Virus record (IMG/VR): IMGVR_UViG_3300012353_000010
Coordinates: 1 to 21,446 of that record
Strand: one strand, 5' to 3'
DNA from: a virus
Length of the DNA: 21,446 bases
Shown here: positions 4,108 to 21,446 of the stretch, piece after piece
Position numbering within the stretch: the stretch's first letter is position 1
Layout of the letters: each line of letters starts with the position of its first letter
Translations under genes and position numbers: made by a program
The notes under the pieces: model-generated
Databases searched by the model: none
What the model saw: only the letters and a program-made list of their open reading frames with translations
What the model was told of the DNA's origin: nothing

Positions 4108-4112
4108 TAAAC

Positions 4113-4134
4113 GGCCGTTTTCTCTGAAACGGCC
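4113..4134. terminator. Hairpin between convergent genes, possible bidirectional terminator
   Basis: A perfect 8-bp inverted repeat (GGCCGTTT / AAACGGCC) with a 6-base loop lies six bases after the stop of the plus-strand gene at 4107 and about 50 bases after the end of the minus-strand glycosyltransferase gene. There is no long U-run on either strand (the minus-strand transcript continues GTTTATC), so it is a weak intrinsic terminator at best. Its position between convergent genes is the main support. Confidence 0.45.
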
Positions 4135-4182
4135 AAAGTCACACCACTATTGGAGCAGCAGGTGTCGCCTCACGCTTGTCCC

Positions 4183-5082: not shown

Positions 5083-5135
5083 TGACTCTCTTCTCATGTT
5101 GAGCATATTGCGTAAACGTGTCGGCAACGGTAGTC

Positions 5136-5152
5136 GGCACAAGAGCTGTGCC
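5136..5152. promoter_or_regulatory. Small hairpin in the divergent intergenic region
   Basis: GGCACA and TGTGCC form a 6-bp stem with a 5-base loop in the short region between the minus-strand glycosyltransferase start (5082) and the plus-strand GT-B-like gene. The stem ends one base before ATGAGGAG (5153-5160), so it could influence ribosome access to the plus-strand gene. I could not fit a good sigma-70 promoter in either direction within this gap. Confidence 0.25.
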
Positions 5153-5168
5153 ATGAGGAGCGCAGGTC

Positions 5169-5927
5169 ATTCCACGCATCATACCATACATCACCGATCA
5201 TCAGCATAGTCGCATCGTCATTGGTGCCGCTGCCGAAGGTCTGCGCGCCGAGCCCCGCATTGCCGCTTCATCAGCGTGGGTTCCTGAACCGTCGCTCGTC
5301 TATGGCATCTTGAGAGGGTGCCAGGATATCATCAGGAAATGTCGGGCCGTCGGAATTGATTGGTGGCACATCGATCTAGGCTACTTCGGACGTGGCCACT
5401 ATGATGGATATTACCGCCTGAGTCGCAATGGACTTTGGCCGTCTAGTATAGTTTACCCTAAATGCGAAAGAGAGCTCCCAAAGCTTGAACCATGGAAAGC
5501 TGGAAATGGGCCAATCGTTATTTGCCCGCCAACTGCAAATTTTGCCGTTAATCACCCCTATGAGAAGCTGGACGAATATGACTGGACAGATAGTGTTAGG
5601 CGCGCCATTGCCAAACTAACCGATCGGCCGACATATGTGCGTGATAAGAAATCACACGAAGGGACTGCCCTTGGCGACCCGTGGTGTGTTGTTGTTCATT
5701 CATCGAACATCGCTATGGAAGCGATGATGGCTGGAACACCAGCGATTGCGCTTGGTGATTGTCTGGTTAAGGACTTTGGTCCGAATTTAGAAAACATCGA
5801 ACATCCCCAAATTCTGCGTGGTGTGGATCGTGAGTTACTTTTCTCTATCGCCGCTCATGCGCAATTTACGCTTGACGAGTTCCGCAGTGGATATGCCTTC
5901 GAGCTTTCGCGGGAGTTGCAGGGATGA
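5169..5927 (+). CDS. Glycosyltransferase-like protein (GT-B C-terminal motif), start uncertain
   Basis: The frame is open from 5157, and the codons upstream of the first conventional start (TTG at 5310) encode sequence that looks real (RIIPYITDHQ, RIVIGAAAEGLRAEPRIA, WVPEPSLVYGI), so the TTG-start version is probably truncated. The best placed start is an ATT at 5169, eight bases after GAGGAG (5155-5160), giving 252 residues. An ATG at 5153 lies in another frame, so a one-base error or frameshift is an alternative. The C-terminal half contains VVVHSSNIAMEAMMAGTP, typical of the donor-binding region of GT-B and capsule-synthesis enzymes, and the middle has WWHIDLGYFGRGHYDGYYR. Donor and acceptor are unknown. 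The stop overlaps the next small gene (ATGA). Confidence 0.6.
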   Translation: MPRIIPYITDHQHSRIVIGAAAEGLRAEPRIAASSAWVPEPSLVYGILRGCQDIIRKCRAVGIDWWHIDLGYFGRGHYDGYYRLSRNGLWPSSIVYPKCERELPKLEPWKAGNGPIVICPPTANFAVNHPYEKLDEYDWTDSVRRAIAKLTDRPTYVRDKKSHEGTALGDPWCVVVHSSNIAMEAMMAGTPAIALGDCLVKDFGPNLENIEHPQILRGVDRELLFSIAAHAQFTLDEFRSGYAFELSRELQG

Positions 5928-6082
5928 AGCACGATAAGCATTCACCATGGGCCCTCGATTTCGATGATCACCGCACGTCGCTGATCGAGCGGGTGTTGGT
6001 TTATCTCGGCATTGCCTGCATGCTCATCAGCACCGTGTCAGAAGTGATTCAGGGAATCCAAGCATGGCAGATAATAAGATGA
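5924..6082 (+). CDS. Small single-span membrane protein, 52 aa
   Basis: This short gene starts in an ATGA overlap with the preceding glycosyltransferase-like gene and ends 19 bases inside the next one. The product starts with a polar, acidic/histidine-rich segment (MKHDKHSPWALDFDDHRTS) followed by one hydrophobic helix (residues about 24-37, VLVYLGIACMLIST) and a short tail. The overlaps on both sides and the clean amphipathic layout support a real gene despite its size. Function is unknown; an anchor or partner for the neighbouring glycosyltransferases is only a guess. Confidence 0.55.
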   Translation: MKHDKHSPWALDFDDHRTSLIERVLVYLGIACMLISTVSEVIQGIQAWQIIR

Positions 6083-6279
6083 TGCATCGTGGAAAAGTCG
6101 AAATCACATTTTCTCGGCTTGCCCAAATTCTCGGGTTGCCAAGTGATGTTGAAATAGTGCGTGTTGATGAGTGCGATAGCGGTATCGTTCAAGTGACAGT
6201 ACGTGGTGTCGGATACGAGGTGCATGAAGGTAGTATGATGCCTGTAGCTGGTAAATATATCGGGATTGACTGGAAATAA
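6064..6279 (+). CDS. Hypothetical protein, 71 aa
   Basis: The ATG lies within the end of the 52-residue gene, after CAGGGAATCC as a possible ribosome-binding site. The protein reads as a small alpha/beta domain: VEITFSRLAQILGLPSDVEIVRVD, then GIVQVTVRGVGYEVHEG. Small proteins with this kind of RLA-x-I-LGLP...V.V.G pattern recur in phage genomes, but I know of no function. The base composition is clearly richer in A and T than the portal and terminase genes, a trait shared by the next gene, which hints at separate acquisition of this pair. Confidence 0.55.
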   Translation: MADNKMMHRGKVEITFSRLAQILGLPSDVEIVRVDECDSGIVQVTVRGVGYEVHEGSMMPVAGKYIGIDWK

Positions 6280-6496
6280 TGATGGCATCACACCATCAGA
6301 AGTATGTACAGGGATTCTAGGCGTAGCAGACACCGCAATGATACAGCCAATCTTTAAAGAGCTTACTCTAGAGGTCATTGAGCTTGCCAAAGAACTTTCA
6401 GAAGAAACCGGTCTTGAATTAGTTGAGGTTTTTACTGCCATGGGCACATCATCTGCACTAAGTATGATGATAAGGTCGAGAGAAAAGTCTAACTAG
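6266..6496 (+). CDS. Hypothetical helical protein, 76 aa
   Basis: The frame overlaps the preceding gene by 14 bases and starts at TTG (6266); the first in-frame ATG is at 6338 and has no ribosome-binding site, so the start is open. The C-terminal half (FKELTLEVIELAKELSEETGLELVEVF) is strongly helical and acidic, then TAMGTSSALSMMIRSREKSN. No catalytic motif, membrane span or signal is seen. The stop TAG directly abuts the next ATG (TAGATG), in keeping with coupled translation. Function unknown. Confidence 0.45.
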   Translation: MTGNNDGITPSEVCTGILGVADTAMIQPIFKELTLEVIELAKELSEETGLELVEVFTAMGTSSALSMMIRSREKSN

Positions 6497-7216
6497 ATGT
6501 CGTTGACTGCATGGATCGGATGGACTGGCGAGAGCGCCCTCGCATATGAGGTCTGTAAGGCGTCGCTGCTCGCCAATGCTAGTATCGATGTTGACGTGCG
6601 TCCGCTGCGACATTGGGAGTTGCGCAACGCTAAGATTTACCGCCGGCCGTACACCGTTACTGGCGAAGGGCAGCGTATCGACGGTGTGGACAACACGCCA
6701 TTTTCAACAGATTTCTCGTTCACCAGATTTCTGGTGCCGGCGCTTGAAGACTTTGCAAACAAGTGGGTTTTATATTGCGACAACGACATGCTGTGGCTGG
6801 ACGATGTAGCCAAGCTGCTTGATGATGTTTCATGGCACAAGCACACATGGGCCATGGCATGTGTCAAGCATGACCATGCTCCGCCGGCCAACAAGAAAAT
6901 GGTCGGCTATGTGCAGACCAGTTACCGCCGTAAGAATTGGTCGTCGCTGATGATGATGAATCCTCAGAAGTGCGCTTATCTGAGCGTCGATAAGGTCAAT
7001 GAGGCAACAGGATCATGGTTGCACGGGCTGGAATTTGTCGAGGATCACCAGATCGGGACACTCGATCCGCGCTGGAATGTTCTCTATGGGGTACAGCATC
7101 ATCCGGACCCAGCGGTAGTGCATTTCACGAACGGCACGCCGGATATGCCATTTGCGATGCTCAACGGAAGCCCGTACGAACGGATATGGCGCACATGCGC
7201 GGGCCGGGTGGCATGA
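6497..7216 (+). CDS. GT8-like (GT-A fold) glycosyltransferase
   Basis: The 239-residue product fits GT8-type retaining glycosyltransferases, which use a metal-bound nucleotide sugar. Landmarks in the expected order are TDFSFTRFLVPAL at residues 71-83, the DxD metal site in LYCDNDMLWLDD (D95, D97), WSSLMMMNPQKCAYL around 148-162 (the position of the SG-x-M-x-N segment), EDHQIGTLDPRWNVL at 182-196 (the DQD/WN region) and VVHFTNGTPDMP at 207-218 (the HxxG...KPW region that holds the second metal ligand). There is no membrane segment, so it acts in the cytoplasm. It overlaps the next gene by ATGA. The donor and acceptor cannot be told from the sequence. Confidence 0.75.
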   Translation: MSLTAWIGWTGESALAYEVCKASLLANASIDVDVRPLRHWELRNAKIYRRPYTVTGEGQRIDGVDNTPFSTDFSFTRFLVPALEDFANKWVLYCDNDMLWLDDVAKLLDDVSWHKHTWAMACVKHDHAPPANKKMVGYVQTSYRRKNWSSLMMMNPQKCAYLSVDKVNEATGSWLHGLEFVEDHQIGTLDPRWNVLYGVQHHPDPAVVHFTNGTPDMPFAMLNGSPYERIWRTCAGRVA

Positions 7217-7902
7217 GGGTCGTCTCGACATTTCCGCTGGCGCACGCCGAAATCTACGGCGAGGATTTCCTCATTGATTGCGCGCGTTTCGATGTGCCGT
7301 TGACGCTCGTTCACTATGAGCCATTCGGCGCTGTTCTCGATCTCGGAGAGGTGCGGATCGACTCGACAGACGATCGCGAAGTTCGAGGGTTTCTGTGCGA
7401 CTGTGATCGCAACTTTCCACCAAACGAAAGCTATCGTTTCCAGGCTGCGCGTTTTTGCTTCAAGGCATTTGCCATGACGCGCCCGGACATTCGCGATGTG
7501 GATTGGCTGGTGTGGATCGATGCCGATGTGCGTATGCACGATGATCCAGATTGGCGGGAGTTACTGAATCACCGAGCTGATGTCTGTTATCTCGGTCGAA
7601 GCGAATGGGATCATTCTGAAACCGGATTTCTCGCCTTTAACATGCGCCGCCGGGGCGCCGAGGCGCTTGATGCCATCCGATCTATGTATACGAGTCGCAA
7701 TATTTTCTCACAGCAGCAATGGCATGATGCATGGATTTTCGATCTGGTGCGAGAACGTCTGAAACTCAAATGTCACAACCTATCGCCCGAAGCCAAGGGC
7801 TTGGACGCATGGGAAGCATCACCGCTTGCTTTATGGAGCAAGCATCTAAAGGGCAATCGCAAATTCACGGAGTCGGAATGCCAAAGCTTCTCATCGAAAT
7901 AG
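7213..7902 (+). CDS. Putative GT-A-type glycosyltransferase with DxD motif
   Basis: I place the start at the ATG at 7213, which overlaps the previous stop (ATGA); the frame is open upstream to 7015 but that part is antisense-like noise over the GT8 gene. The 229-residue protein starts MRVVSTFPLAHAEIYG and has WLVWIDADVRM (DxD at 103-105), SETGFLAFNM at 135-144 and WHDAWIFDLVRERL at 170-183, an arrangement typical of nucleotide-diphospho-sugar transferases where ETG and HD-x-W contact the acceptor and metal. A late histidine (HLKGNRK at 211) may be a metal ligand. It differs from the GT8-like neighbour, so two different linkages are likely. Family number not assigned. Confidence 0.65.
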   Translation: MRVVSTFPLAHAEIYGEDFLIDCARFDVPLTLVHYEPFGAVLDLGEVRIDSTDDREVRGFLCDCDRNFPPNESYRFQAARFCFKAFAMTRPDIRDVDWLVWIDADVRMHDDPDWRELLNHRADVCYLGRSEWDHSETGFLAFNMRRRGAEALDAIRSMYTSRNIFSQQQWHDAWIFDLVRERLKLKCHNLSPEAKGLDAWEASPLALWSKHLKGNRKFTESECQSFSSK

Positions 7903-7967
7903 GCGCGTTCGGCGGACTGGGATTCCTGGTCTTTATCGCACTGAATCTATTAACATGGGCCATATAG
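7878..7967 (+). CDS. Very small membrane protein, 29 aa
   Basis: The proposed ATG lies within the end of the glycosyltransferase gene, behind ACGGAGTCGGA. The whole product after MPKLLIE is one hydrophobic helix (IGAFGGLGFLVFIALNLLTWAI), with a Gly-rich face. The stop TAG is one base before the ATG of the large methyltransferase fusion gene. The frame stays open back to 7731, but that longer reading lies in the shadow of the glycosyltransferase gene. Such mini-proteins are easy to miss in gene calling. Function unknown. Confidence 0.4.
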   Translation: MPKLLIEIGAFGGLGFLVFIALNLLTWAI

Positions 7968-7968
7968 A

Positions 7969-9801
7969 ATGCGCACCGAACATCTAGACGATCTGATTAA
8001 GTTGCATAAGCCGCGTATCATCACCGAAATCGGTGTGGCGAGATGCACAACCGCGTTGCGCATGATCGATTGCGCGTTCAAAGAACAAGACGAGATCACG
8101 TACTATGGCTTCGATCTGTTCGAGGATTTGGACGATGCCAGGATCAAGGCCGAGTTTCAGGGAAAGAAGCCGTTGTCTTTCGACCAGGCTTGCAAGCTGT
8201 TTACCGATGCGACTACGCGTTATGCTGAGCATGGCAAAACGCTTCATTGGAATCTGCAGCGAGGCTCAACGACACAAACGTTACTTCATTGCCAGAAAGA
8301 GGCGCTGACCGCTGATCTTGTCTACCTGGACGGAGGGCATTCGGTCGAGACCATCAAACATGATCTGCGAGCATTGAAGGGCTCAAAGGTCATTCTGCTG
8401 GATGACTTCTACCACGACCGGGAACCAGATTTCACTCAGCGCTGGGGTTGCAACGCTGTGGTGCAGGAGCTGTATCCCGGCGATTTTGCATTCATGCCAG
8501 TTATCGACCGCATGCCGGGAGCTGATGGCCATCCGATCGACATTGGGCAGGTGGTGGTGCCGCGCAGCGCTTGGCCACTGGCGCGCCTCATGGCGCCGCT
8601 GACGGTCATTCGCCAGAGCAAGCCGAAGACGGCATTCATCTATGCCGACCCGGTTTCGACACGCTATCTCAGCCGCGAGATCATCGCGCATGGCGGCACC
8701 GTGACGGAAGAATTCGCGCGTACCGACATCGATTTCTCCTATGTCGATTGTGTCTGCGGCGATCAGTATATGGATCGCGACGAAGCCATCGATGCATGGG
8801 AGAAAATCAAGCACGTCCCGGTGAAGGTATTCGGAGGCCTGGTGCTGGATGATGCCGTTCATGATGGTGCCGGCCATATCCTGCATGCTGATCCCACCAT
8901 CAATCGCATGACGATTTCTGGTCTGGACAAGCTCGATGGTCGCGAAGTCGGTTGCTTCGTCTCGCCGAAGGCTGCATGGCAACAGAAGGCGCGCATTCAC
9001 GTCGCCACGCGCAACTGCGTCGACAACGAAGTCATCATCGCCAATATTCGCGCCAATGCGCCACGGATTCATCGCTGGATTGAAACATGCCGGCCGCATG
9101 ATGGCAAAATCCTGTTCGTTTCGGCAGGGCCAAGCCTCAAGGGGTTGCTGCCGGAAATCCGCGAACGGTCCACCGATGCCAAGATCGTCTGCGTCAAACA
9201 TGCGCACGATCCCCTGATAGAGGCCGGCATCATTCCGTGGGGCTGCGTGCTGCTCGATCCACGCGATCACGTCAAACAGTTCGTCCAGAACCCACATCCC
9301 CGGACGATCTACTTCACCGCGTCAATGGTTTCTCATACCACGGTGGATATCCTGCTCGAGAAGCGGGCGCGGATTGTCGGTTATCACGCGCTGGTTGGCG
9401 CTGGTGAGGATAAGGTGCTCCCGAAGGGCACCATGTTCATGGTGGGTGGCACGTCCGCTGCCGTGCGCGGGCTGCCGCTATTCTTGACGCTCGGCTTTAG
9501 GGATTTCACCCTATATGCCTATGACAGCTGCTTCGATGAACGCCCAGCAAATATCGGCGAAAAGACCAAGCTTGGTTATGACCGATATGTCAAAGTCGAG
9601 ATTGGCGGCAAGAAGTTCTGGACAGAACTCGAACTCGTAGCCCAAGCTCAGGATTTCAAAGAGTTCATGACGATTTTAAGTCAGACGGAAATGACATCAT
9701 CAGTAAAGCTTGATGTGCGTGGTGGTGGTATCTGTAAGCACCTGTTCGACTTAATGCGTCCAATCCGTCCGTCATTCGAGGACCTTGCCAGGATTTTCTA
9801 G
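7969..9801 (+). CDS. Fusion protein: class I methyltransferase (Methyltransf_24-like) + DUF115/MAF-like domain
   Basis: The 610-residue protein appears to hold two recognisable parts. Residues 1-150 look like a Methyltransf_24-type SAM methyltransferase: IITEIGVARCTTALRMI (17-33), YYGFDLFED (45-53), LHWNLQRGST (92-101), ADLVYLDGGHSVETIKHDL (115-133) and VILLDDFYHD (141-150). Residues about 380-600 look like DUF115, the core of Maf motility-associated factors that transfer nonulosonic sugars to flagellin: ILFVSAGPSLKGLL (381-394), GGTSAAVRGLPLFLTLGF (493-510) and TLYAYDSCFDE (514-524). The 200-residue linker (about 180-380) holds another alpha/beta region I do not recognise. Placement after three or four glycosyltransferase genes fits glycoprotein or glycan synthesis. 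Donor, acceptor and methylation target are inferred only. Confidence 0.75.
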   Translation: MRTEHLDDLIKLHKPRIITEIGVARCTTALRMIDCAFKEQDEITYYGFDLFEDLDDARIKAEFQGKKPLSFDQACKLFTDATTRYAEHGKTLHWNLQRGSTTQTLLHCQKEALTADLVYLDGGHSVETIKHDLRALKGSKVILLDDFYHDREPDFTQRWGCNAVVQELYPGDFAFMPVIDRMPGADGHPIDIGQVVVPRSAWPLARLMAPLTVIRQSKPKTAFIYADPVSTRYLSREIIAHGGTVTEEFARTDIDFSYVDCVCGDQYMDRDEAIDAWEKIKHVPVKVFGGLVLDDAVHDGAGHILHADPTINRMTISGLDKLDGREVGCFVSPKAAWQQKARIHVATRNCVDNEVIIANIRANAPRIHRWIETCRPHDGKILFVSAGPSLKGLLPEIRERSTDAKIVCVKHAHDPLIEAGIIPWGCVLLDPRDHVKQFVQNPHPRTIYFTASMVSHTTVDILLEKRARIVGYHALVGAGEDKVLPKGTMFMVGGTSAAVRGLPLFLTLGFRDFTLYAYDSCFDERPANIGEKTKLGYDRYVKVEIGGKKFWTELELVAQAQDFKEFMTILSQTEMTSSVKLDVRGGGICKHLFDLMRPIRPSFEDLARIF

Positions 9802-11990: not shown

Positions 11991-12496
11991 TCATCAGCAG
12001 GCTATTCGATGACTGGCGCCGATATGGCATTTACAATTGCGAATACGAACGGCCGATCGCCTTTCGCACTGTCGACGGCTGGCAGCTTTATAAGCCCGCC
12101 GTCTACAAGTGGGTATGGGACCGTGGGCCATTCGGCATCATGCACCCCTCCGGCTATCGCTGGGAGGCTAGTGTGCCAGCGATAGCACGTGGCATTGCTG
12201 ATCCAGAGATGCTGTGGGAAGCTTCGCTTCCGCATGACATCGGCTATGAGACGCAGGGCGGGCTGCGGCCGTTCCGGGTGTGGCATGATGATGGAACATT
12301 CTCCGAGCAGCAGCTGGTCAACTGGTATACCAGCAGGCCTCTCTCGGAAAACCCGGTGAGTAAGAGCCGCTGGGATGCTGTGCTGTTCGCCTTTGCGCTT
12401 GCCTCCGGAGTGCATCCAGGCATGGCCGAAGAAACCTATGTCGCGGTGACCATTGGCGGCGGTCCGGCGTGGGCAAGCGAGGAACCAGAGGCATGA
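11987..12496 (+). CDS. DUF1353-like phage protein
   Basis: The ATG at 11987 overlaps the endolysin stop, giving 169 residues. The protein has the DUF1353 layout: RPIAFRTVDGWQLYKPA near the start, then WEASVPAIAR (59-68, the position of the usual FDGASVP) and ASLPHDIGYET (79-89) with the conserved His-Asp. DUF1353 proteins occur in many phages, often by lysis or tail genes, with unproven function; the HD pair and SVP motif hint at a metal-dependent enzyme. No membrane segment. Followed by ATGA overlap with the next gene. Confidence 0.65.
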   Translation: MIISRLFDDWRRYGIYNCEYERPIAFRTVDGWQLYKPAVYKWVWDRGPFGIMHPSGYRWEASVPAIARGIADPEMLWEASLPHDIGYETQGGLRPFRVWHDDGTFSEQQLVNWYTSRPLSENPVSKSRWDAVLFAFALASGVHPGMAEETYVAVTIGGGPAWASEEPEA

Positions 12497-12810
12497 CGGG
12501 TTCTGAAACAGTCGGGTTCCTGTTCGACATTTCACCGGCGCTGAGCAATCTATTGATCACCGTCGCCACCGGATTCTTTGGCGTGGTGATGGCGTGGATC
12601 GCCTACAAGACCAGCACCATGGACAAGACGCTCAAGGAGCAGGCGACGCATATGCAGAAAGTTGTCGAGACGACTAATGGTATGAACGAAGCGCGACTTG
12701 CTGCTGAGAAGACCGCCGCGTTGGCTGTCGGGATGCTCGAAGGCCGCCAGCAAGTCCGCAAGGAGCTGAGCGGTGAATCGCCCAGTCCGGACAAGACCGG
12801 CAAGCCATGA
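12493..12810 (+). CDS. Membrane protein with one TM helix and coiled coil (holin or inner-membrane spanin candidate)
   Basis: The ATG at 12493 overlaps the previous stop and has GAGG just upstream. The 105-residue protein has a short N-terminus, a hydrophobic helix at about residues 18-37 (SNLLITVATGFFGVVMAWIA) and then a charged helix (YKTSTMDKTLKEQATHM ... RLAAEKTAALAVG) likely to form a coiled coil, ending in a polar tail. One N-terminal span plus a coiled coil fits an i-spanin, and a one-span holin is also possible. Its partner would be the next gene, a lipoprotein candidate. Lysis role is inferred from context. Confidence 0.55.
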   Translation: MTGSETVGFLFDISPALSNLLITVATGFFGVVMAWIAYKTSTMDKTLKEQATHMQKVVETTNGMNEARLAAEKTAALAVGMLEGRQQVRKELSGESPSPDKTGKP

Positions 12811-13118
12811 TCGTTATCAGGGCGCTGCAGATCGTGGCATTGCTCGCGGCAGTCGATCTGTCCACAGGCTGCGCCAATACTGAGTACGGCGGACTGAATT
12901 ACGCCACTGTGATTGCGCCAAACGGAGAAACGTGGAAGGTGATCAGCGGCAAGGATCAAACCGACACCAAGCTGGACATCGTTCGTGGCGATACGACTGT
13001 GCATTACAGCTCGAGCAAAGAAGACGCCACCACGGCGTTGACTGCTGCGCTCAAAGCTCAAACCGACCTGATCTCGCAACTGGCTGGATTGGTTTCTGGT
13101 CTGGTGCCTAAACCGTGA
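12807..13118 (+). CDS. Small lipoprotein candidate (possible outer-membrane spanin)
   Basis: The 103-residue protein starts with a basic-hydrophobic leader (MIVIRALQIVALLAAV) and a Cys at residue 22 in DLSTGC. The lipobox is imperfect because Ser, not a large aliphatic residue, is at -3, so lipidation is likely but not certain. The mature part has YATVIAPNGETWKVISGKDQ and a helical Ala/Leu-rich C-terminus. It overlaps the preceding gene by ATGA. Position after a membrane/coiled-coil protein fits an o-spanin, although it is larger than many and lacks a Pro-rich linker. Confidence 0.5.
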   Translation: MIVIRALQIVALLAAVDLSTGCANTEYGGLNYATVIAPNGETWKVISGKDQTDTKLDIVRGDTTVHYSSSKEDATTALTAALKAQTDLISQLAGLVSGLVPKP

Positions 13119-13161: not shown

Positions 13162-13698
13162 ATGACGGTCACTGCAATTCTCAACACCCCCGCGAGTCTC
13201 GATCTTCCGATTGCCACGCCTTCCGCCGATGGGCTCATGTCGGCTGCTGACAAGTACAAAGTGGACAACATCGCCACCGGCACCGCTGGTGTGGCGAGCT
13301 TCAACAGCCGCACCGGTGCGGTCACGTCGGCTCCCGGAGATTATAACGCTAGTCAAATTACCGAGACGAGCAGCGCCAAAATCCTGACTTCTGCCGAGCG
13401 CGCCCGCATTCTCAGAGCGAATACCGTTACCCGTTTCACCGGTTCGCAAATCATCGGCCTTGCCGAGATGTTCGCCGATTATGCCGGCACATCATCGGCA
13501 ACCGCGACACTCACCACTGATATGACGGCTACCGTCATCACGATCGCCAATCGCGGCTCTTCTGTCTTGACCATTACGGCTGGCTCTGGACAGATCATCA
13601 ATGGTGGCAATATTGCTCTTCCTGCTGGCACGGCGAGCAGCCCGTCCAGCGTCTGTCTGACTCGCGATCCATCAAATGGCTCTTGGTGGAAGCGCTAA
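13162..13698 (+). CDS. Short tail fibre protein
   Basis: GGAGG at 13149-13153 lies eight bases before the ATG, so this start is firm; the frame is open to 13120 but that part is the repeat. The 178-residue product has the tail-fibre motif GLMSAADKYKVDNI at residues 24-37 and one copy of the repeat VASFNSRTGAVTSAPGDY at 44-61. The C-terminal 50 residues (VLTITAGSGQIINGG, SVCLTRDPSNGSWWKR) match the end of the next, larger fibre (RTITGGN, TICFSIRASNGSWRKV), so the two genes are paralogues and this is a miniature version. Likely a trimeric fibre or fibre tip. Confidence 0.8.
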   Translation: MTVTAILNTPASLDLPIATPSADGLMSAADKYKVDNIATGTAGVASFNSRTGAVTSAPGDYNASQITETSSAKILTSAERARILRANTVTRFTGSQIIGLAEMFADYAGTSSATATLTTDMTATVITIANRGSSVLTITAGSGQIINGGNIALPAGTASSPSSVCLTRDPSNGSWWKR

Positions 13699-13719
13699 CA
13701 TCTCAAAGGACTACTGTAC

Positions 13720-15705
13720 ATGACGATCTCTGCGACGTGGAGCACCACAGGCGATCTGACGATTGCCAATGCCACGACCGTAACCGCCGGCCTGATGTCG
13801 GCGAACGACAAGATCAAGCTCGATGGGGTCGAGGTATCCGCAACCGGCGATATGACCGGTTCGGAGATCGTCAGCTCGATCAACACGGCACTCGGGGGGA
13901 CCGTCTGGCAAATCGGTGTCAGCGGTGGCTACTCTACGCCAGCCGAAGTGGTCGTCGCGCTGGACACGTGGTTCACCGATCAGACACCGCAGGATTTGAC
14001 CTGGCGTGATCAGCACGTCGATACGGTATTCGGTCGCTCCGGACCGGCGGTCATCGCGGTATCAGGCGACTACGCGATCCCGCAGATCACCGATCTGGTG
14101 TCGGCGCTCGGAGCGAAATCACCGACCAGCCACGCGCATACCATCTCGGATACGACCGATCTCACGACGCAGCTGTCGGCGCTCAAGCTGATCGTCAAGT
14201 CATCGGCTGCCGTGGTTGTCTCTGGCGCGCCGGTGCTCGACTTCTACGGCGCTGCGGTGTCCGCTGGTAACGGTGGTGCGGTCATCGCCATCACTGGCCA
14301 AGTCGCCAGCGTTTTCACGCGTACGGGCGCCGTAGCGGCTGTATCGGGCGATTACGATCTGTCCAAGATCGCCGAGACTGGAACCTACAAGCTCTACACC
14401 GCGACAGATCAGTCTCTTGTTGCTCAGGCGACGGCGGCACTCGTCTCGGCTGCCTTGGTCAAGCGCGACAGCAGCGGTCGTTTTCAGGCGCAATCACCGC
14501 TGGTGACCGGAGATGTGGCGACCAAGGGTTATGTCGATACGCTCGTACCGGCCACCGGCAATGCCACAACCACAATACCATTCACTGTGGGCTCCACGCA
14601 GGTGGTCGACATGTCGGCGGCCAACTCGGAGTTCCCCAATCAACGCCGTGTTTTCTTTGATGCGACCAATGTCACGGATTTCTATCTCGCCGGTAGATGC
14701 GATATCGCTGGAGTTGCCGGATCAAAGTATTTCTTGCAATACAGCGTTGATGGAACTGCTGTTGGTGGAACGACGTGGACGCCCGTATCAGGCGCAGAGT
14801 TCTCTCTGACATCTACCGGCCATCAAGCCAGTTCCATCGTCACTTGGCCGTCTGCAGCGAGAACCAATCACACATGGGTAAGGCTGATGAGCGTCGGCGG
14901 TAATGCTACCGCTGATCCTTCAGTCGTCATGTTGACTGGTAATTTCATCTACAAGACTGGCGGCGGTGGAGGTGGTGGCGCGGTCTCGAGCGTGTTCGGC
15001 CGGACCGGTGCGGTCGTTGCTGTCAGTGGCGATTACATCGCCAACCAAATCACAGTGACGCCGGTAGGCAACCTGGCGTCGACGCATGTGCAAGCCGCAT
15101 TGCAGGAACATCAGGGTGATATCGATGCGCTGACCGCGGGGACTGTTCCCGACAACAGCATCACCAACGCTAAGCTGGCAGATGTGGCGACAGCCACCAT
15201 CAAGGGTCGCATCACCGCTGCGACCGGCGATCCGGAAGACCTGACAGCAGCTCAGACGCGCACGCTGCTGAGCATTGTCGATGGTGTATCGAGCGTCTAT
15301 GGCCGTACCGGCGCGGTTGTTGCCGTCAGCGGCGATTACGTAGCATCCAAGGTCAATGAGGATGCAACGCGCGTCATTATGTCGGCGACCGAACGCACAC
15401 GGCTCGCAGGCATGGAAGATGGCGCGACGAAGTGGCTTCCATCGATGCCGGCGATCATCGTCAACACCACCATGACGACAGAATTTGCCGAGATCACCGG
15501 ATCGTCGGTAACGCAGGTGACGCTTCCGGCCCCACCGATCAACCTGGCTCGTATCTCGAATTACGGTACGACCACGGTTACGATCGTCGGCGGCTCTCGC
15601 ACCATCACCGGTGGCAACATGACGCTTGCGCCAGGCACGGATACTGTTCCAAGCACCATCTGCTTTTCGATTCGAGCATCGAACGGGAGCTGGCGGAAGG
15701 TCTAA
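13720..15705 (+). CDS. Tail fibre protein with repeated FGRTGAV modules
   Basis: AAAGGA nine bases upstream supports this ATG. The 661-residue protein has GLMSANDKIKLDGV at residues 24-37, four copies of a module like SSVFGRTGAVVAVSGDY (near 100, 195, 421 and 523), a middle domain with SGRFQAQSPLVTGDVATKGYVD, a seven-Gly hinge at 414-420 and the SWRKV-type C-terminal domain shared with the preceding gene. These are classic traits of host-recognition fibres of tailed phages. KLADVATATIKGR and GDPEDLTAAQTR are also widespread fibre modules. The hinge may separate a shaft from an exchangeable tip. Confidence 0.85.
   Translation: MTISATWSTTGDLTIANATTVTAGLMSANDKIKLDGVEVSATGDMTGSEIVSSINTALGGTVWQIGVSGGYSTPAEVVVALDTWFTDQTPQDLTWRDQHVDTVFGRSGPAVIAVSGDYAIPQITDLVSALGAKSPTSHAHTISDTTDLTTQLSALKLIVKSSAAVVVSGAPVLDFYGAAVSAGNGGAVIAITGQVASVFTRTGAVAAVSGDYDLSKIAETGTYKLYTATDQSLVAQATAALVSAALVKRDSSGRFQAQSPLVTGDVATKGYVDTLVPATGNATTTIPFTVGSTQVVDMSAANSEFPNQRRVFFDATNVTDFYLAGRCDIAGVAGSKYFLQYSVDGTAVGGTTWTPVSGAEFSLTSTGHQASSIVTWPSAARTNHTWVRLMSVGGNATADPSVVMLTGNFIYKTGGGGGGGAVSSVFGRTGAVVAVSGDYIANQITVTPVGNLASTHVQAALQEHQGDIDALTAGTVPDNSITNAKLADVATATIKGRITAATGDPEDLTAAQTRTLLSIVDGVSSVYGRTGAVVAVSGDYVASKVNEDATRVIMSATERTRLAGMEDGATKWLPSMPAIIVNTTMTTEFAEITGSSVTQVTLPAPPINLARISNYGTTTVTIVGGSRTITGGNMTLAPGTDTVPSTICFSIRASNGSWRKV
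14017..15339 (+). repeat. Four dispersed fibre repeat modules
   Basis: Four coding copies of the V-F-G-R-T-G-A-V...V-S-G-D-Y module lie at about 14017-14073, 14302-14355, 14980-15036 and 15286-15339; a more distant fifth copy is at 13291-13344 in the short fibre. The third and fourth copies are near identical (VSSVFGRTGAVVAVSGDY and VSSVYGRTGAVVAVSGDY) and could recombine, changing fibre length. Confidence 0.75.
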
Positions 15706-15723: not shown

Positions 15724-16611
15724 ATGAGTTGCTGTTTTTCGAGCACCGAAGCAGTTCCGATCACTGCTGGGGTTTTCACGGCTAATGGTCCGTTCAACGC
15801 GGTTATTACGGCCAATCCCGTGTTGGATTCAAATTCCGCAAATATTTCGACCAATCAGGCTGGTCGCACTCACGTAATGGATATTTATGACTACGGCGTT
15901 CCTATCTATGACGCCGATGCTGGCATGACAAAGTACGTTGTGAACGTAATCAATGCCCCGGACTGGGGGCCCAATGCGTTCTCTACGTATCCATGTCCAC
16001 TTACATCGAGCATGGCGCCGTCGCCTGGTAGTGATGGCGCCATGTGTGTCGTGGACTGGACAACGCGTAGATCGTACGAGTTCTGGCAATATGCGTGGAA
16101 TAGCGGATCGCCAAGCTGTTCCTGGGGAGCGGTATTCAGCTTGGACAGTGATGGCGTCACGCCGCTTGTAGCGGGCGCAATCGGGCCAATTGGCGCCGGC
16201 TTTTCGCGACTTGCCGGCATTGTGCGCATGTCGGAACTCACCAGTGCACTTATCCCGCATCCCTTGGTGTTCTCTAGCGGCATGTCTGGAAGCGGCTGGA
16301 TATATCCGGGCGTTAAGAGTGACGGCGGTGCAACTGGCAATGTCTTTAAAGAGGGTCATAGGATTCAGCTGAATCCAGCTGCCAATATCGACAGTCTCAC
16401 TGGCGTTACACGTACGATCGCTCAGGCGTTGAAAACCTACGGCGCGTATTGCATGGATGTTGGTGGCTCCGGCCTCAATTTCATATTCGAGACTCCACAC
16501 CCCGGCGGTCCCGATCCATACCCAGGATTGGGTGTTGGCGGTGATTACTTTGGGCTATCAGCAATACCGTGGAGCAGCATACGCGTCTTGAATACGTGGA
16601 ATGGAGTCTAA
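15724..16611 (+). CDS. MxCC protein 1: unknown extracellular-type domain
   Basis: AGAGGAA eight bases before the ATG supports the start. The 295-residue product begins MSCCFSST, the first of five proteins with this motif. The rest resembles secreted proteins of unknown function I recall from actinobacteria: GAMCVVDWTTRRSYEFW, GAGFSRLAGIVRMSEL, GHRIQLNPAANIDSL and QALKTYGAYCMDVGGSG. The His and Asp/Glu residues in these stretches are candidates for a polysaccharide-active site, but no activity is established. There is no signal peptide, in keeping with a virion component released at lysis. The next gene shares the domain in a diverged form; its ATG overlaps this stop by one base (TAATG). Confidence 0.6.
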   Translation: MSCCFSSTEAVPITAGVFTANGPFNAVITANPVLDSNSANISTNQAGRTHVMDIYDYGVPIYDADAGMTKYVVNVINAPDWGPNAFSTYPCPLTSSMAPSPGSDGAMCVVDWTTRRSYEFWQYAWNSGSPSCSWGAVFSLDSDGVTPLVAGAIGPIGAGFSRLAGIVRMSELTSALIPHPLVFSSGMSGSGWIYPGVKSDGGATGNVFKEGHRIQLNPAANIDSLTGVTRTIAQALKTYGAYCMDVGGSGLNFIFETPHPGGPDPYPGLGVGGDYFGLSAIPWSSIRVLNTWNGV

Positions 16612-17621
16612 TGGTTTGCTGTTTCTCGAGCACGGAGACTCCAATCGTTTCGAGAGATGCGTCTCTGTGGCCATTTTCATCGACTTCGGCATTCAACACG
16701 CCGATCGGCAGTGACGCAGTATTTGTCGACCACCCGCTGCTGAGAAGCGTCACATGGGTTTTCAACGGTCCGGGACCAGCGTGGAGCGTGCCTATTGCGC
16801 TTTACGATATAGCGAATCCTCTCGTCAACATTTCACAATCGAATCAATGCAATGAAGGAAGCTCATTCACGGCGCTGAATCTGCGCATCCCGAGCGGTAT
16901 GACGGGAGCTGATCCGCAGATATGTTATCGAGATGGCATGTTGTGCGTACTCAGCGATGATGGATATGCATACGGGTTTAATCAATTCAGACGAACGAGC
17001 GACACAACTGGATTAGCTGCGTATCATCAGCGGTACAACTTCGACCACCTGATAACAGGTGATGGATACAACCCGACTGCCGGTTTGTGGACAAAGGGTC
17101 ATTGGATAGCTGGTGTAAGTCTCATTGCTGGCGTAATTCGCAAATGGGAGGTCGATGCAATCGCAGCGGATTCTCTTCCGTACATGCGTCATGCGCTACA
17201 AATTGCACTTCCGGATGTGATTTTGCGAGCCGCTGGCGGAGGTGGGCAATCTACCACATACCGGTGGCCGGCAACATTCTCAGATGGTGGATGGGCAAAC
17301 TACAGCGGAACCGTCTGGATTGGCTCTTTGCTCGCCATTCCGCCGACATTCAATATCGATGCTCAGCTTTGGAATGAGCCAGCAAAGGTTCTTGCCAGAA
17401 CGTTGCAAAAGTTCGGTGGTTATCCAGTGGCAAGAGCCGGTACGGCCAACATCATGGTGGAGACTGGGGCGCTGCAAGCGCCCATCACTCAAATGAATCA
17501 GCATTTATACGCCATTCGCAACGAGCTCAGGCTTGTTGACAACAACACGCCGACTACGGTCGGCGGTGGTGGCAATTATCCATCAGAGCTGTGGCCTCTA
17601 CCTCCGCCAGTTCTTCCATGA
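16611..17621 (+). CDS. MxCC protein 2: diverged paralogue of MxCC protein 1
   Basis: I choose the ATG at 16611 (TAATG overlap) rather than 16569 because it gives MVCCFSST, matching the other four genes. The 336-residue protein shares the later part with its neighbour: SLIAGVIRKWEVDA against SRLAGIVRMSELTS, FSDGG against KSDGG, FNIDAQ against ANIDSL, and LARTLQKFGGYPVARAG against IAQALKTYGAYCMDVGG. It therefore seems a tandem duplicate that has diverged strongly. A Gly-rich patch (RAAGGGGQST) and a Pro-rich C-terminus (WPLPPPVLP) are extra features. Enzymatic role unknown. The stop overlaps the next ATG by ATGA. Confidence 0.55.
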   Translation: MVCCFSSTETPIVSRDASLWPFSSTSAFNTPIGSDAVFVDHPLLRSVTWVFNGPGPAWSVPIALYDIANPLVNISQSNQCNEGSSFTALNLRIPSGMTGADPQICYRDGMLCVLSDDGYAYGFNQFRRTSDTTGLAAYHQRYNFDHLITGDGYNPTAGLWTKGHWIAGVSLIAGVIRKWEVDAIAADSLPYMRHALQIALPDVILRAAGGGGQSTTYRWPATFSDGGWANYSGTVWIGSLLAIPPTFNIDAQLWNEPAKVLARTLQKFGGYPVARAGTANIMVETGALQAPITQMNQHLYAIRNELRLVDNNTPTTVGGGGNYPSELWPLPPPVLP

Positions 17622-18760
17622 CATGTTGTTTTCAGAGTGTCGTCGCGCTGCACGAAATCGTTGCCGCAAGCCCGGCATTGGCCGATGTGCAGGCAGCGGT
17701 CGATGCTGCCGTGAATGGCGACATTGTGCGTGTTCCTGCTGGCGCGGCCACTTGGAATGACTCTCTGAACATCATCAACAAGACGATCTTCCTCACCGGA
17801 GCCGGCTCTGGCGTGTCGGGAACAGTCATCAATTATGGCGGACATTCGCTTATTATGATCGATGCCGGCACACAGATAGGTCACATGTCCGTATCTGGTT
17901 TCCGCTTCGTCGGTGGAGATGCGAACAATTGGAGCGGAACCGCGATCAACTTTTCAGGTGCGATAGGCTGGAAGAATTTTCGTATTCATCACAACGTGTT
18001 CGACAACAATTTGCAGTATTCCCTCCGTGGCAGCGCTGCGACGTGCGGATTGATCGACAACAACATATTTCAGGGTTCAGCTCATGGAATAGAGCTGTCT
18101 GGAAATGGCAATATTGATTGGACCACAGCGCTAGTTCTCGGAACAGACGGATTCTTCTTCATAGAAGGAAACACGTTCAATTGGGATGACTGGTATGGCA
18201 GCACCGGTGCCATCACAGTGGACTTTTACAACGGTGGGCGCGTTGTTTTTCGTAACAATACATGTCGGAATGCGCTGTTCGAGACGCACGATCGCGCGCG
18301 CGATGGATTTCCTAGCGCCAATGCCTGGGAAATCTACAACAACACATTCACGTGCGATTCAAACCACTGGAAAGGTTTAGACATTACGGCTGGAACTGGA
18401 GTTATTTGGGGCAATACGTTCACCGGCGATTGGTCTGTGCCGATCGGCGCTATGGATTACAAGACGTTCGACTCTCGCAGCATTCCGCCGTGCGATGGCA
18501 ACGACGCGGACGACCAGAATGTGCCCGGGGAGACGGGATGGCGTTGCCAGTATCAGATCGGCTCGCAGAATTGGGGAGCCAATGCCGTAGGATATCCGGC
18601 ATATATTTGGAGCAACACCAAGAACGGCGTGGCGGAGGGCATGTATTGCACTTCCGGCGCAATTCACGTTGTTGATGGGCGAGACTTTATCAACAACGGC
18701 ACGACGTCCAAGTCGGGCTATACACCATTCATGTATCCGCATCCCCTGCAGTTGCTGTGA
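17618..18760 (+). CDS. MxCC protein 3: right-handed beta-helix (pectate-lyase-like) protein
   Basis: The ATG at 17618 overlaps the previous stop and gives MTCCFQSV. After a short linker the 380-residue protein has ADVQAAVDAAVNGDIVRVPAG, the usual cap of pectate-lyase-like beta-helices (VQ-AV--A-GD-V-VP-G), then turns rich in Asn: FRIHHNVFDNN, GLIDNNIFQGS, FFIEGNTFNWDD, VVFRNNTCRN, WEIYNNTF, GVIWGNTFTG. The C-terminal quarter leaves the helix pattern. The likely role is polysaccharide binding or cleavage. No signal peptide. It differs from the spike at 1-1224 in its tag and ends. Confidence 0.75.
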   Translation: MTCCFQSVVALHEIVAASPALADVQAAVDAAVNGDIVRVPAGAATWNDSLNIINKTIFLTGAGSGVSGTVINYGGHSLIMIDAGTQIGHMSVSGFRFVGGDANNWSGTAINFSGAIGWKNFRIHHNVFDNNLQYSLRGSAATCGLIDNNIFQGSAHGIELSGNGNIDWTTALVLGTDGFFFIEGNTFNWDDWYGSTGAITVDFYNGGRVVFRNNTCRNALFETHDRARDGFPSANAWEIYNNTFTCDSNHWKGLDITAGTGVIWGNTFTGDWSVPIGAMDYKTFDSRSIPPCDGNDADDQNVPGETGWRCQYQIGSQNWGANAVGYPAYIWSNTKNGVAEGMYCTSGAIHVVDGRDFINNGTTSKSGYTPFMYPHPLQLL

Positions 18761-19965
18761 TGTGCTGTTTTTCCAGTACACCTCAACCGGCCTCACCTAT
18801 TGCGATTCCACGCTGGGGTGTGGCAATGCTGCCGGGCTCTGCCGAGCAGTACTCGGACGTGACGGGAATGGGTGTGCATATGGTGCGACGTGGGCTGCGG
18901 TGGACTGCTGCCGAGCCCAATGCGCCAGTTGCCGGTGTCCGGACATATACATGGGTCGCACATGATGCGGCGGTCGCCAGGGCCAATGCAGCTGGCGTCA
19001 AGCTGCTTGGCGTGCTCGCGAACGGTCCCCAGTGGGCGTGCCCGGGCCCGGCTAATTCCGGACCGACGAACGTTCAAGATTATCTGGATTACGTAAACGC
19101 CATTTCCGCACGCTATGCCGGCCGCGTCGATGGCTACGAGATTTGGAACGAGCCACAAGGCAACGGGCTGAGCACTTTGTTGTACAAAACCATGTTGATA
19201 GGCGCATATCTGATCATTAAGGCAAACGATCCTGCCGCGATGGTTGTAGGCATCGTGGCAAACGGTACGTTCGTGGACGCCAATTCAGCGACGCGCAATG
19301 CATGGTACAACACTGTTTTATCAGATGCTCAGGTGCGCGCAAGCATGGACGCGGCAAGTGTTCACACTTACACGCGGCCGTATCCCCCTGAGATCGGTGC
19401 TGCGACCGGTCCGCTCGATGTGCGGCTCGCCAACAGCAATGCGTTGTTGGCCAGCAAAGGCTTCAGCAATCCCGTCTTCGTCACAGAGGGCAATTGGCCA
19501 TCTGCCGGCACAACGCCTGGTGTCGTCAGCGAGGCCGACCAAGCGCGTTTTATTGTTCGCATGGCGATCATCAATGGCTTGTTCTGCGCGCGCTTCTATC
19601 CGTTTCACATGTATGGGTATGTGAGCGCGGACGAGGCCGGCGGCATGGGGTTCATCCGTCCGGATGGGACTCACAAGCCGTCATATACCGCATGGCGGAC
19701 GATGGCCGGTGTTCTTGATGACACCGTGATAAACATATCTGCCGTCAGCACCGGCAACACGCGCTGTTATCGTTTTAACCGCAGCAATGGCACTTACGGT
19801 TTCGCGGCATGGTGTGTCACGGGAACGGCAGACCTACAACTCACTGGGCTACCGTTATCGATACGCCAGACGACGTTGCTCGGCGTCGAGTCCATCCTAG
19901 CCACCACTGATGGCGCGCTCACTGTCGCACTCACCGGCGATCCTGTTTACATCGATACTCAATGA
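18757..19965 (+). CDS. MxCC protein 4: clan-A glycoside hydrolase (GH39/GH5-like TIM barrel)
   Basis: A GTG at 18757 gives MMCCFSST in register with the M-x-C-C-F motif of the neighbours and a GTGA overlap with the previous stop; an ATG at 18760 is the alternative. The 402-residue protein has AVARANAAGVKLLGVLANGP, then YEIWNEPQG with the acid/base Glu (E132) and VFVTEGNWPS with the nucleophile Glu (E244), the two-Glu layout of clan-A retaining glycosidases such as GH39 and GH5. ASVHTYTRPYP (200-210) is the expected His/Tyr strand. A beta-rich C-terminal part follows (after about 330). A retaining exo- or endo-glycosidase on host surface glycan is likely; the substrate is unknown. Confidence 0.8.
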   Translation: MMCCFSSTPQPASPIAIPRWGVAMLPGSAEQYSDVTGMGVHMVRRGLRWTAAEPNAPVAGVRTYTWVAHDAAVARANAAGVKLLGVLANGPQWACPGPANSGPTNVQDYLDYVNAISARYAGRVDGYEIWNEPQGNGLSTLLYKTMLIGAYLIIKANDPAAMVVGIVANGTFVDANSATRNAWYNTVLSDAQVRASMDAASVHTYTRPYPPEIGAATGPLDVRLANSNALLASKGFSNPVFVTEGNWPSAGTTPGVVSEADQARFIVRMAIINGLFCARFYPFHMYGYVSADEAGGMGFIRPDGTHKPSYTAWRTMAGVLDDTVINISAVSTGNTRCYRFNRSNGTYGFAAWCVTGTADLQLTGLPLSIRQTTLLGVESILATTDGALTVALTGDPVYIDTQ

Positions 19966-21026
19966 CCTGCTGCTTGGCATCGGTCCCAATCCTGACCGGT
20001 CATCAATATTGGGTTTCGCCATCTGGATCGGATTCCAATCCTGGTAATCAGTATCAGCCATTCGCCACCATTTCGCAGGCAGCCGGCGTCGTTGTGCCTG
20101 GTGATACGGTACACGTTGCTCCTGGCAACTACGCTGGTGGATTCATCACGACGAGAAACGGCACCCCTAATGCTCGCATTCGCTTCGTGTCGAATGTCAA
20201 ATGGGCAGCCAAGATCAACTCGAATCCTTCGGGACATTGGGCAGCATGGGAAAGCAGGGGAGATTACGTCGACATAGACGGCTTCGAAATATCTGGAATT
20301 GGCCTTGTTTGGAGGATTGGGCTATACCTCACGGGATCATACGATGTGGCAAAGAACAATTATGTACACAACATTATGAATGGCGCATGTGATTCATCTG
20401 GTGGCGCTGGTATAGAGAATGATCATTTTTATGGTGGTGTAAACATTGATATCATCAACAATATCGTTGATCACATAGGCCCGGTTAACGGTTGCAATAC
20501 AATACAGGGAATATATGTTGCGACAAGTGGCAAGATTCACAACAATCTAGTTCATGGAATTGCCGGATGGGGAATTACGACATGGCATGATGCAACCGAT
20601 TCAGAGATTTTCAACAACACAATATTCAACTGCGTATCTGGTGGAATAAGCATCGGCACCGGTGGTTACTACACTCTGGATTCAACGCTGATAGGCAGAT
20701 TCCATGTTGCCAACAACATCACATACGGCAACGCCGGATATGGCATAAATGATTTTGGCGACATTGGGAACGACAGTTATGCGGTAAACAATATGTCGTT
20801 TGCTAATGGCACGAACTGGTCTATAAACCAAGTGTACTCATACAGCAATTTTACCGCAAATCCTCTATTCGTGAATTACATTGCCACCGGTGGTGGTGAC
20901 TATCATGTCCAGGCAGCATCTCCGGCTGTCGATGCTGGTGTACTGTTTGGTGCGCCGGCGATCGATCTGGATGGCATCGTCAGGCCGCAAGGTGCCGGTG
21001 TCGACATCGGCGCGTACGAGCGCTGA
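19962..21026 (+). CDS. MxCC protein 5: beta-helix protein, PL9/DUF1565-like
   Basis: The ATG overlaps the previous stop (ATGA) and yields MTCCLASV, the most divergent form of the motif. The 354-residue protein continues YWVSPSGSDSNPGNQYQPFATISQAA and VVPGDTVHVAPGNYAGG, the standard beginning of DUF1565/PL9-type parallel beta-helices. It has many Asn-rich turns (KNNYVHNI, IINNIVDHIG, KIHNNLVHGI, EIFNNTIFN, VANNITYGN) and ends with DLDGIVRPQGAGVDIGAYER, a common end of such helices. A lyase or polysaccharide-binding role is likely; the PL9 catalytic Lys was not located. It is the last plus-strand gene, ending right against the convergent ORF. Confidence 0.75.
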   Translation: MTCCLASVPILTGHQYWVSPSGSDSNPGNQYQPFATISQAAGVVVPGDTVHVAPGNYAGGFITTRNGTPNARIRFVSNVKWAAKINSNPSGHWAAWESRGDYVDIDGFEISGIGLVWRIGLYLTGSYDVAKNNYVHNIMNGACDSSGGAGIENDHFYGGVNIDIINNIVDHIGPVNGCNTIQGIYVATSGKIHNNLVHGIAGWGITTWHDATDSEIFNNTIFNCVSGGISIGTGGYYTLDSTLIGRFHVANNITYGNAGYGINDFGDIGNDSYAVNNMSFANGTNWSINQVYSYSNFTANPLFVNYIATGGGDYHVQAASPAVDAGVLFGAPAIDLDGIVRPQGAGVDIGAYER

Positions 21027-21335
21027 TTATGACTTCCATCCGAGACGCCTGGCGATCTCTTTGTATACAGCATCGAGCTCGGCATAGGGAGACTCTGGCG
21101 GAAACTCGTAGTGTTCGCACTCGGGGAAAGGCTGCCGGTCTCTCCCGGCTGTCACACCACTCGCGCCCGCATGGTCTGCCAGGACGGCTGGGCGCGGCGC
21201 CCAAGGTGTCGGGGGTGGCGTAGCAGCAAGCGTAGCAGCGTCTCCCGCAACCCCTTCGGAATGCCCGGATTCGAACCGGGGACCCCTGCCTCCCGAAGGC
21301 CTCTCTCCGGCACGGTTCTCGGCGCGTTCAGTCAT
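21027..21335 (-). CDS. Hypothetical protein, 102 aa, reading through the tRNA-like site
   Basis: AGGA lies eight bases before the ATG on the minus strand. Three parts are seen: a basic start (MTERAENRAGERP); then GGRGPRFESGH, which is simply the translation of the tRNA-Pro 3' half; then a Pro/Ala-rich stretch and an acidic, protein-like end (CEHYEFPPESPYAELDAVYKEIARRLGWKS). The end looks like real coding sequence, while the middle may be non-coding attP DNA that happens to stay open. It converges on the last MxCC gene with no gap. Function unknown. Confidence 0.35.
   Translation of the reverse strand: MTERAENRAGERPSGGRGPRFESGHSEGVAGDAATLAATPPPTPWAPRPAVLADHAGASGVTAGRDRQPFPECEHYEFPPESPYAELDAVYKEIARRLGWKS
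21218..21239. repeat. Direct repeats near the tRNA-like core, possible integrase arm sites (left)
   Basis: GCGTAGCAGC occurs at 21218-21227 and 21230-21239, a 12-base period. A third near copy (GCGTAGCGGC) lies on the other side of the tRNA-like core at 21414-21423. Direct repeats on both sides of a core are usual for arm-type binding sites of tyrosine integrases. In the minus ORF they encode a repeated AAT tripeptide, so a coding origin is possible. Confidence 0.3.
21256..21299 (-). other. attP-like core: 3' half of a tRNA-Pro(CGG) gene
   Basis: On the minus strand the 44 bases read as tRNA-Pro from the anticodon loop to the discriminator base: loop TTCGGGA (anticodon CGG, 21291-21297), right anticodon strand GGCAG, variable loop GGGTC, a perfect 5-bp T-arm CCCGG-TTCGAAT-CCGGG (21264-21280), acceptor strand CATTCCG and discriminator A (21256). 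The 5' half is missing: the matching acceptor strand CGGAATG and a D-arm are absent upstream, and only the loop-proximal anticodon pairs form. A 3' tRNA half starting at the anticodon loop is the classic attachment site of temperate phages. Phage-like sequence on both sides fits attP rather than a prophage end. CCA is not encoded. Confidence 0.6.
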
Positions 21336-21446
21336 TGTTCGGTTCCTGTTGCTGCACTGGTGGGGTATTTGCGGCGCTGCCGGCGCTCACTGACGCTTCG
21401 CTGCGTGGAAGCTGCGTAGCGGCACATTACGATCTGTCTGTCCACA
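21336..21446. other. Right-edge non-coding segment with repeats
   Basis: No convincing gene is seen in these last 111 bases. GCTGCGT occurs at 21400-21406 and 21411-21417 (11-base period), followed by the GCGTAGCGGC copy at 21414-21423, which may form the second arm of the attachment site. An integrase gene would be expected just beyond the edge. Confidence 0.3.

What the first reader, a model, noticed from the sequence alone, without database searches (positions are those of the whole stretch)
15724..21026. Five consecutive unrelated enzymes share an N-terminal M-x-C-C-(F/L)-x-S-(T/V) tag
The genes at 15724, 16611, 17618, 18757 and 19962 encode MSCCFSST, MVCCFSST, MTCCFQSV, MMCCFSST and MTCCLASV, then diverge into four different protein types. 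The codons vary synonymously (TGC/TGT for Cys, TTT/TTC for Phe, AGC/AGT for Ser), so selection seems to act on the peptide and not only on the DNA. Such a short tag before different beta-helix and glycosidase bodies suggests a common docking peptide, disulfide or metal site, or modification signal that mounts interchangeable glycan-acting proteins on the virion. I know of no described phage tag of this kind. The role is inference; the motif is directly visible.
Basis: partly seen in the sequence, partly recalled or inferred. Interest (0 to 1): 0.9.

Follow-up and report, generated by a model that had tools for sequence, protein, structure and literature searches.

The report
Shared di-cysteine tag on phage enzymes
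Five neighbouring phage genes for sugar-attacking proteins of four unrelated kinds all begin with the same eight-residue, two-cysteine tag, which most likely plugs each of them into a common holder on the virus particle; short plug peptides are known in other phages, but this cysteine version was not found anywhere else.

Summary
Five consecutive overlapping genes (15724-21026) start M-x-C-C-(F/L)-x-S-(T/V). No other protein called in the window contains a CC pair. Given the first tag, the chance of the other four is about 1e-28; counting homologous P1/P2 as one event, about 1e-21. Codons for identical residues have diverged, including AGY versus TCG serine, so selection acts on the peptide. 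Similarity stops at residue 8-9. Bodies: P1/P2 (homologous to each other and to a domain inside Gordonia phage minor tail proteins), P3 probable beta-helix, P4 GH5/39-like glycosidase, P5 Pel9A/DUF1565 beta-helix. A bacterial P5 homologue has a Sec-type leader where P5 has the tag. No homologue examined has the tag. Best reading: a docking peptide mounting interchangeable glycan-acting proteins on one virion site. Scans of 2.9 million viral contigs and 85,000 genomes (one codon subset), 385 alphaproteobacterial genomes and phage relatives found no second example. Virion location, partner and cysteine chemistry are untested.

The parts
15724..16611 (+). P1, 295 aa, tag MSCCFSST; body homologous to P2
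   Evidence: no Pfam/PHROG/NCBIfam hit
16611..17621 (+). P2, 336 aa, tag MVCCFSST; body = phrog_17388, found inside Gordonia phage minor tail proteins
   Evidence: (E=2.7e-14)
17618..18760 (+). P3, 380 aa, tag MTCCFQSV; probable parallel beta-helix
   Evidence: weak TIGR03805 (E=0.0036, below cut-off); low-confidence strand pattern
18757..19965 (+). P4, 402 aa from GTG (401 from ATG 18760), tag MMCCFSST; GH5/39-like glycosidase with a YEIWNEP motif
   Evidence: Cellulase, sub-threshold; 8uwt; Caulobacter phage Cr30 xylanase, 29%
19962..21026 (+). P5, 354 aa, tag MTCCLASV; Pel9A-like/DUF1565 beta-helix with C-terminal choice-of-anchor Q domain
15724..15747 (+). tag codons 1-8 of P1
   Evidence: repeat D3
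16611..16634 (+). tag codons 1-8 of P2
   Evidence: repeat D3
17618..17641 (+). tag codons 1-8 of P3
18757..18780 (+). tag codons 1-8 of P4
   Evidence: repeat D3
19962..19985 (+). tag codons 1-8 of P5
13165..13698 (+). small fibre-like protein; its C-terminal module shares 38% identity and one Cys (C164) with the next gene; candidate holder (inference)
13720..15705 (+). tail-fibre-like protein, 661 aa; Cys only at 327 and 648, the latter conserved with C164 above; candidate holder (inference)

Best explanation
The eight residues are an N-terminal docking peptide. The phage carries an operon of accessory glycan-acting proteins (two of a Gordonia-tail-protein type, two beta-helix proteins, one glycosidase). 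Each bears the same peptide, which plugs into a common site on a tail fibre or adaptor, so different enzyme bodies can be gained or swapped while the mount stays the same. Met1 is probably removed in P1, P2, P3 and P5, leaving (S/V/T)-C-C-(F/L)-x-S-(T/V). The hydrophobic and hydroxyl residues would fit the pocket, and the adjacent cysteines would lock it, by disulfide to the holder or across a trimer, or by metal. Shown: the tag, peptide-level constraint, unrelated bodies, absence of the tag from the homologues examined. Inferred: virion location, partner, pocket, Met removal, cysteine chemistry.
For: Five of five consecutive genes tagged, no CC in 17 other proteins called in the window; synonymous divergence with the peptide kept; DNA similarity ends at the tag (repeat D3, 102); P1/P2 homologous and the P2 body lies mid-protein in about 730-740-aa Gordonia phage proteins, most of the listed ones annotated as minor tail proteins; two fibre-like genes lie directly upstream; the P5 body is a secreted bacterial type: Massilia has an apparent Sec leader ending ASA-ADLYVST just before the body, and the solved relative 5olq aligns from its second residue; no Sec or lipoprotein signal in the tagged N-termini; precedent of 7-11-residue docking peptides in K1-5/SP6/KP34-type phages (PMC6872550); precedent of Cys in RBP N-terminal arms bonded to the baseplate in Agrobacterium phage Milano (PMC10811340).
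Against: No adaptor with a T7-fibre-N or T4gp10-like domain was seen among the window proteins scanned, but the record is a 21-kb fragment. No second phage with the tag was found, so conservation across phages is not shown. Known docked RBPs are usually trimeric tailspikes; P4 as a glycosidase barrel would be unusual. No experimental or usable structural data (AlphaFold models failed: 63, 101).
Confidence: 0.6

Rival explanations
1. The tag is a vestige of how genes were captured: bodies recombined repeatedly behind one start segment (short shared DNA as crossover or translation-coupling site) and the peptide itself does nothing.
For: Similarity ends at the tag; genes overlap by stop/start and P3-P5 lack a clear Shine-Dalgarno, so the start region could matter for coupled translation.
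Against: Third positions and a serine codon family (AGY vs TCG) diverged while Cys-Cys-Phe/Leu and Ser stayed; a DNA or RNA element should conserve bases. P5 shares little DNA with the others yet keeps the peptide.
Confidence: 0.15
2. The proteins are not on the virion: they are soluble depolymerases released at lysis, and the tag directs them to a host or envelope component.
For: P5 and P4 resemble secreted bacterial enzymes; no trimerisation domain identified.
Against: No signal peptide or lipobox; the P1/P2-type body is part of Gordonia minor tail proteins; location behind fibre genes.
Confidence: 0.12
3. The di-cysteine is a metal or cofactor site or an intra-trimer staple that matters for each protein alone, not a shared mount.
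For: Cysteine pairs near trimer axes are known: Milano TSP Cys24/Cys26 link chains of one trimer (PMC10811340).
Against: The conserved F/L and S-T/V around the pair suggest a specific binding surface beyond cysteines; homologues of the bodies lack the pair (59, 98).
Confidence: 0.13

Closest known systems
Short N-terminal conserved docking peptides of multi-RBP phages (K1-5/K1E/SP6 MAKLTKP and MIQRLGSSLVK; KP34-group MALxxLV), PMC6872550
   Same: 7-11 residues at the extreme N-terminus, shared by otherwise unrelated glycan-degrading proteins; the peptide differs between phage groups
   Different: Sequence is di-cysteine; used five times in tandem in one operon; on at least one non-beta-helix glycosidase; no T4gp10-like or T7-type adaptor identified here; not yet seen in a second phage
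Agrobacterium phage Milano RBP attachment, PMC10811340
   Same: Cysteines in N-terminal arms of receptor-binding proteins; an alphaproteobacterial phage (the host guess here)
   Different: Milano is a contractile phage with cysteines (Cys15; Cys24/26; Cys38) in longer N-terminal regions, not a tag repeated on unrelated proteins; disulfides proven there, unknown here
Gordonia phage minor tail protein domain (phrog_17388)
   Same: Body of P1/P2
   Different: In Gordonia it is fused into a 728-742-aa protein; here it stands alone behind the tag
Pel9A-like/DUF1565 choice-of-anchor Q secreted proteins
   Same: Body of P5, 39-43% identical to Massilia and Azospirillum proteins over nearly full length
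   Different: The Sec-type leader of the Massilia protein is replaced by the tag

Membership tests
Short N-terminal RBP docking peptide (K1-5/SP6/KP34 type) | 7-11-residue conserved peptide at the N-terminus of otherwise unrelated RBPs | tested here: met
Short N-terminal RBP docking peptide (K1-5/SP6/KP34 type) | Bodies are glycan-degrading receptor-binding proteins | tested here: inconclusive
   P4 and P5 enzyme-like, P2 tail-protein-like, P3 weak beta-helix (3, 4, 38, 39, 43); binding and activity not testable
Short N-terminal RBP docking peptide (K1-5/SP6/KP34 type) | Anchor/adaptor with T7-fibre-N and/or T4gp10-like domain in the genome | tested here: inconclusive
   None in the window proteins scanned, but the record is a 21-kb fragment
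Short N-terminal RBP docking peptide (K1-5/SP6/KP34 type) | Peptide conserved in related phages | tested here: inconclusive
   Nearest relatives G418-G420 lack the tag and these genes; no homologous locus to compare
Short N-terminal RBP docking peptide (K1-5/SP6/KP34 type) | Peptide physically binds the adaptor | not testable with these tools
   needs pull-down or cryo-EM
Disulfide-anchored RBP (Milano type) | N-terminal cysteines bonded to tail or baseplate cysteines in the virion | not testable with these tools
   conserved single Cys in the C-terminal modules of both fibre-like proteins is only a candidate partner
Bacterial lipoprotein or Sec-exported protein | Basic n-region, hydrophobic stretch, lipobox or AxA site | tested here: not met
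   0-1 Lys/Arg in 35 residues, best 15-residue hydropathy 0.67-1.64 (89)

The most novel reading that the evidence does not exclude
A thiol-based universal mount: the adjacent cysteines lock five different enzymes covalently or by metal onto one class of virion site, probably conserved cysteines of the neighbouring fibre proteins, so the phage can capture cellular glycan enzymes by swapping their secretion leader for an eight-residue plug.
Probability: 0.2. Interest if true: 0.75.

Novelty: new variant of a known kind. Interest (0 to 1): 0.52.

Why it matters
If right, it shows how a phage can add captured enzymes to its particle with a minimal portable tag, including an enzyme type that in bacteria is secreted. 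A tag of this size would also be a handle for displaying enzymes on phages and for recognising accessory virion enzymes whose bodies alone give no clue.

Tried and rejected
Chance: rejected. Sec or lipoprotein signal: rejected. DNA-level repeat as the conserved unit: disfavoured by codon divergence and repeat limits. Searches for other tagged loci: degenerate M-x-C-C-F/L pattern in 55 virus records and, for M-x-C-C-F, 385 alphaproteobacterial genomes, plus codon-restricted patterns in whole collections; hits were single or in short, mostly shadow frames. Close relatives of the P2, P3 and P5 bodies in viral contigs: none; P2 in 289 alphaproteobacterial genomes: none, though that search had no positive control. 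AlphaFold models of P2 (pLDDT 28) and P3 (39) are too poor to use, so no fold search was run. The Rfam hit BYDV_5_UTR at 14951-15079 is far below its gathering score and is noise.

Full report
What was checked. The window is an IMG/VR virus record of 21,446 bases, not circular, thus probably a fragment. Five consecutive plus-strand genes begin with M-x-C-C-(F/L)-x-S-(T/V), at exactly the coordinates given. P4 starts with GTG at 18757 (MMCCFSST) or ATG at 18760 (MCCFSST). P2-P5 each begin on the stop codon of the gene before; P3-P5 lack a recognisable ribosome site, so coupled translation is likely (sequence reading).

More than chance, and a peptide rather than a DNA signal. Using residue frequencies from 71 ORFs of related phages, the per-gene match probability is 1.1e-7, or about 1e-28 for the other four given the first; treating the homologous P1/P2 as one event still leaves about 1e-21. 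No other protein called in the window has adjacent cysteines. At codons 3, 4, 5 and 7 the pairwise differences are 4, 4 and 23 at codon positions 1, 2 and 3; the first two come only from an AGY-to-TCG serine switch, which is silent. Codons 9-12 are diverged at all three positions. The direct-repeat search finds the tag as a 27-base family in genes 1, 2 and 4 that does not extend further.

The bodies. P1 and P2 are homologous (23% over nearly full length, E=1e-4). P2 matches phrog_17388, 'minor tail protein' (E=2.7e-14), and 69 Gordonia phage records (26-29% among those listed), where the domain lies roughly between residues 230 and 500 of a 742-residue protein in phage Newt. P3 is only weakly assigned to parallel beta-helices. 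P4 is a GH5/39-like glycosidase with a distant homologue in Caulobacter phage Cr30 (29%). P5 is a Pel9A-like/DUF1565 beta-helix with a C-terminal choice-of-anchor Q domain, 43% and 39% identical to Azospirillum and Massilia plasmid-encoded proteins. The Massilia protein has an apparent Sec leader ending in ASA immediately before the body; P5 has the tag there instead (the leader is my reading, not a tool prediction). None of the Gordonia, Cr30, Azospirillum and Massilia homologues has an N-terminal CC.

Phylogenetic reach. Relatives with 41-49% identical terminases and 34-43% identical portals (G418-G420) share the unusual run of glycosyltransferase-like genes between terminase and portal but have no M-x-C-C-(F/L) start; G418 is an 8.8-kb fragment, G419 and G420 are 43-44 kb. 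Codon-restricted tag patterns over all viral contigs gave 8 hits and over 85,000 genomes gave 50; none begins a tandem array, and the reading frames are mostly short. 385 alphaproteobacterial genomes gave only scattered hits, no tandem pair. These scans cover only part of the possible tag spellings, so rarity is indicated, not proven.

Mechanism. A short N-terminal peptide that docks otherwise unrelated receptor-binding proteins is established: in phage K1-5 the K5 lyase binds by MAKLTKP and the endosialidase by MIQRLGSSLVK, and KP34-group second RBPs share only MALxxLV; the peptide differs for each group of phages (PMC6872550). The present tag fits that description in length, place and in being shared by unrelated bodies, and it lies behind two fibre-like genes. 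That makes docking the most likely function (0.6). Cysteine chemistry is a further inference. In Agrobacterium phage Milano, N-terminal-arm cysteines of the tailspike are disulfide-bonded to baseplate and sheath (PMC10811340), which shows such bonds exist in virions. The two fibre-like proteins here share a C-terminal module (38% identical) whose single common cysteine (C164, C648) is a candidate partner; this is only a lead.

What it is not. No Sec or lipoprotein signal. A purely DNA-level recombination or translation element is disfavoured by the codon pattern, though such a site may have helped the genes to be acquired.

Verdict. The di-cysteine sequence, the five-fold tandem use and the placement on a glycosidase and a secreted-type enzyme are the new points. 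New variant of a known kind; interest about 0.5 until a second phage or a partner is found.

Noticed in passing
3117-9801: Between portal (1225) and terminase (9785) lie an FkbM methyltransferase (PF05050), a GT8-like glycosyltransferase, other transferase-like genes and a 610-aa MptE-like/methyltransferase protein (PF01973, PF13578). Relatives G418-G420 keep several of these genes (23-42% identity) between terminase and portal, so a sugar-modifying island is a feature of this phage group.
   Followed up: partly
21240-21340, minus strand: A tRNA-like 3' half (GGGAGGCAGGGGTCCCCGGTTCGAATCCGGGCATTCC) that ARAGORN does not call as a tRNA; possible attachment-site remnant of a temperate phage. No integrase family was seen among the window proteins scanned.
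   Followed up: no
1-1224: A protein with a gp53-like fibre C-terminus, cut off at the window start; whether it carries the tag cannot be seen.
   Followed up: no
12469-13118: Two small genes after the GH108 lysozyme look like an inner/outer spanin pair (the second has a lipoprotein-like start, ...DLSTGCANTE); lysis cassette next to the fibre genes.
   Followed up: no
13291-15344: Four repeats of a VxSVFxRTGAVxAVSGDY-like fibre motif across the two fibre-like genes.
   Followed up: no
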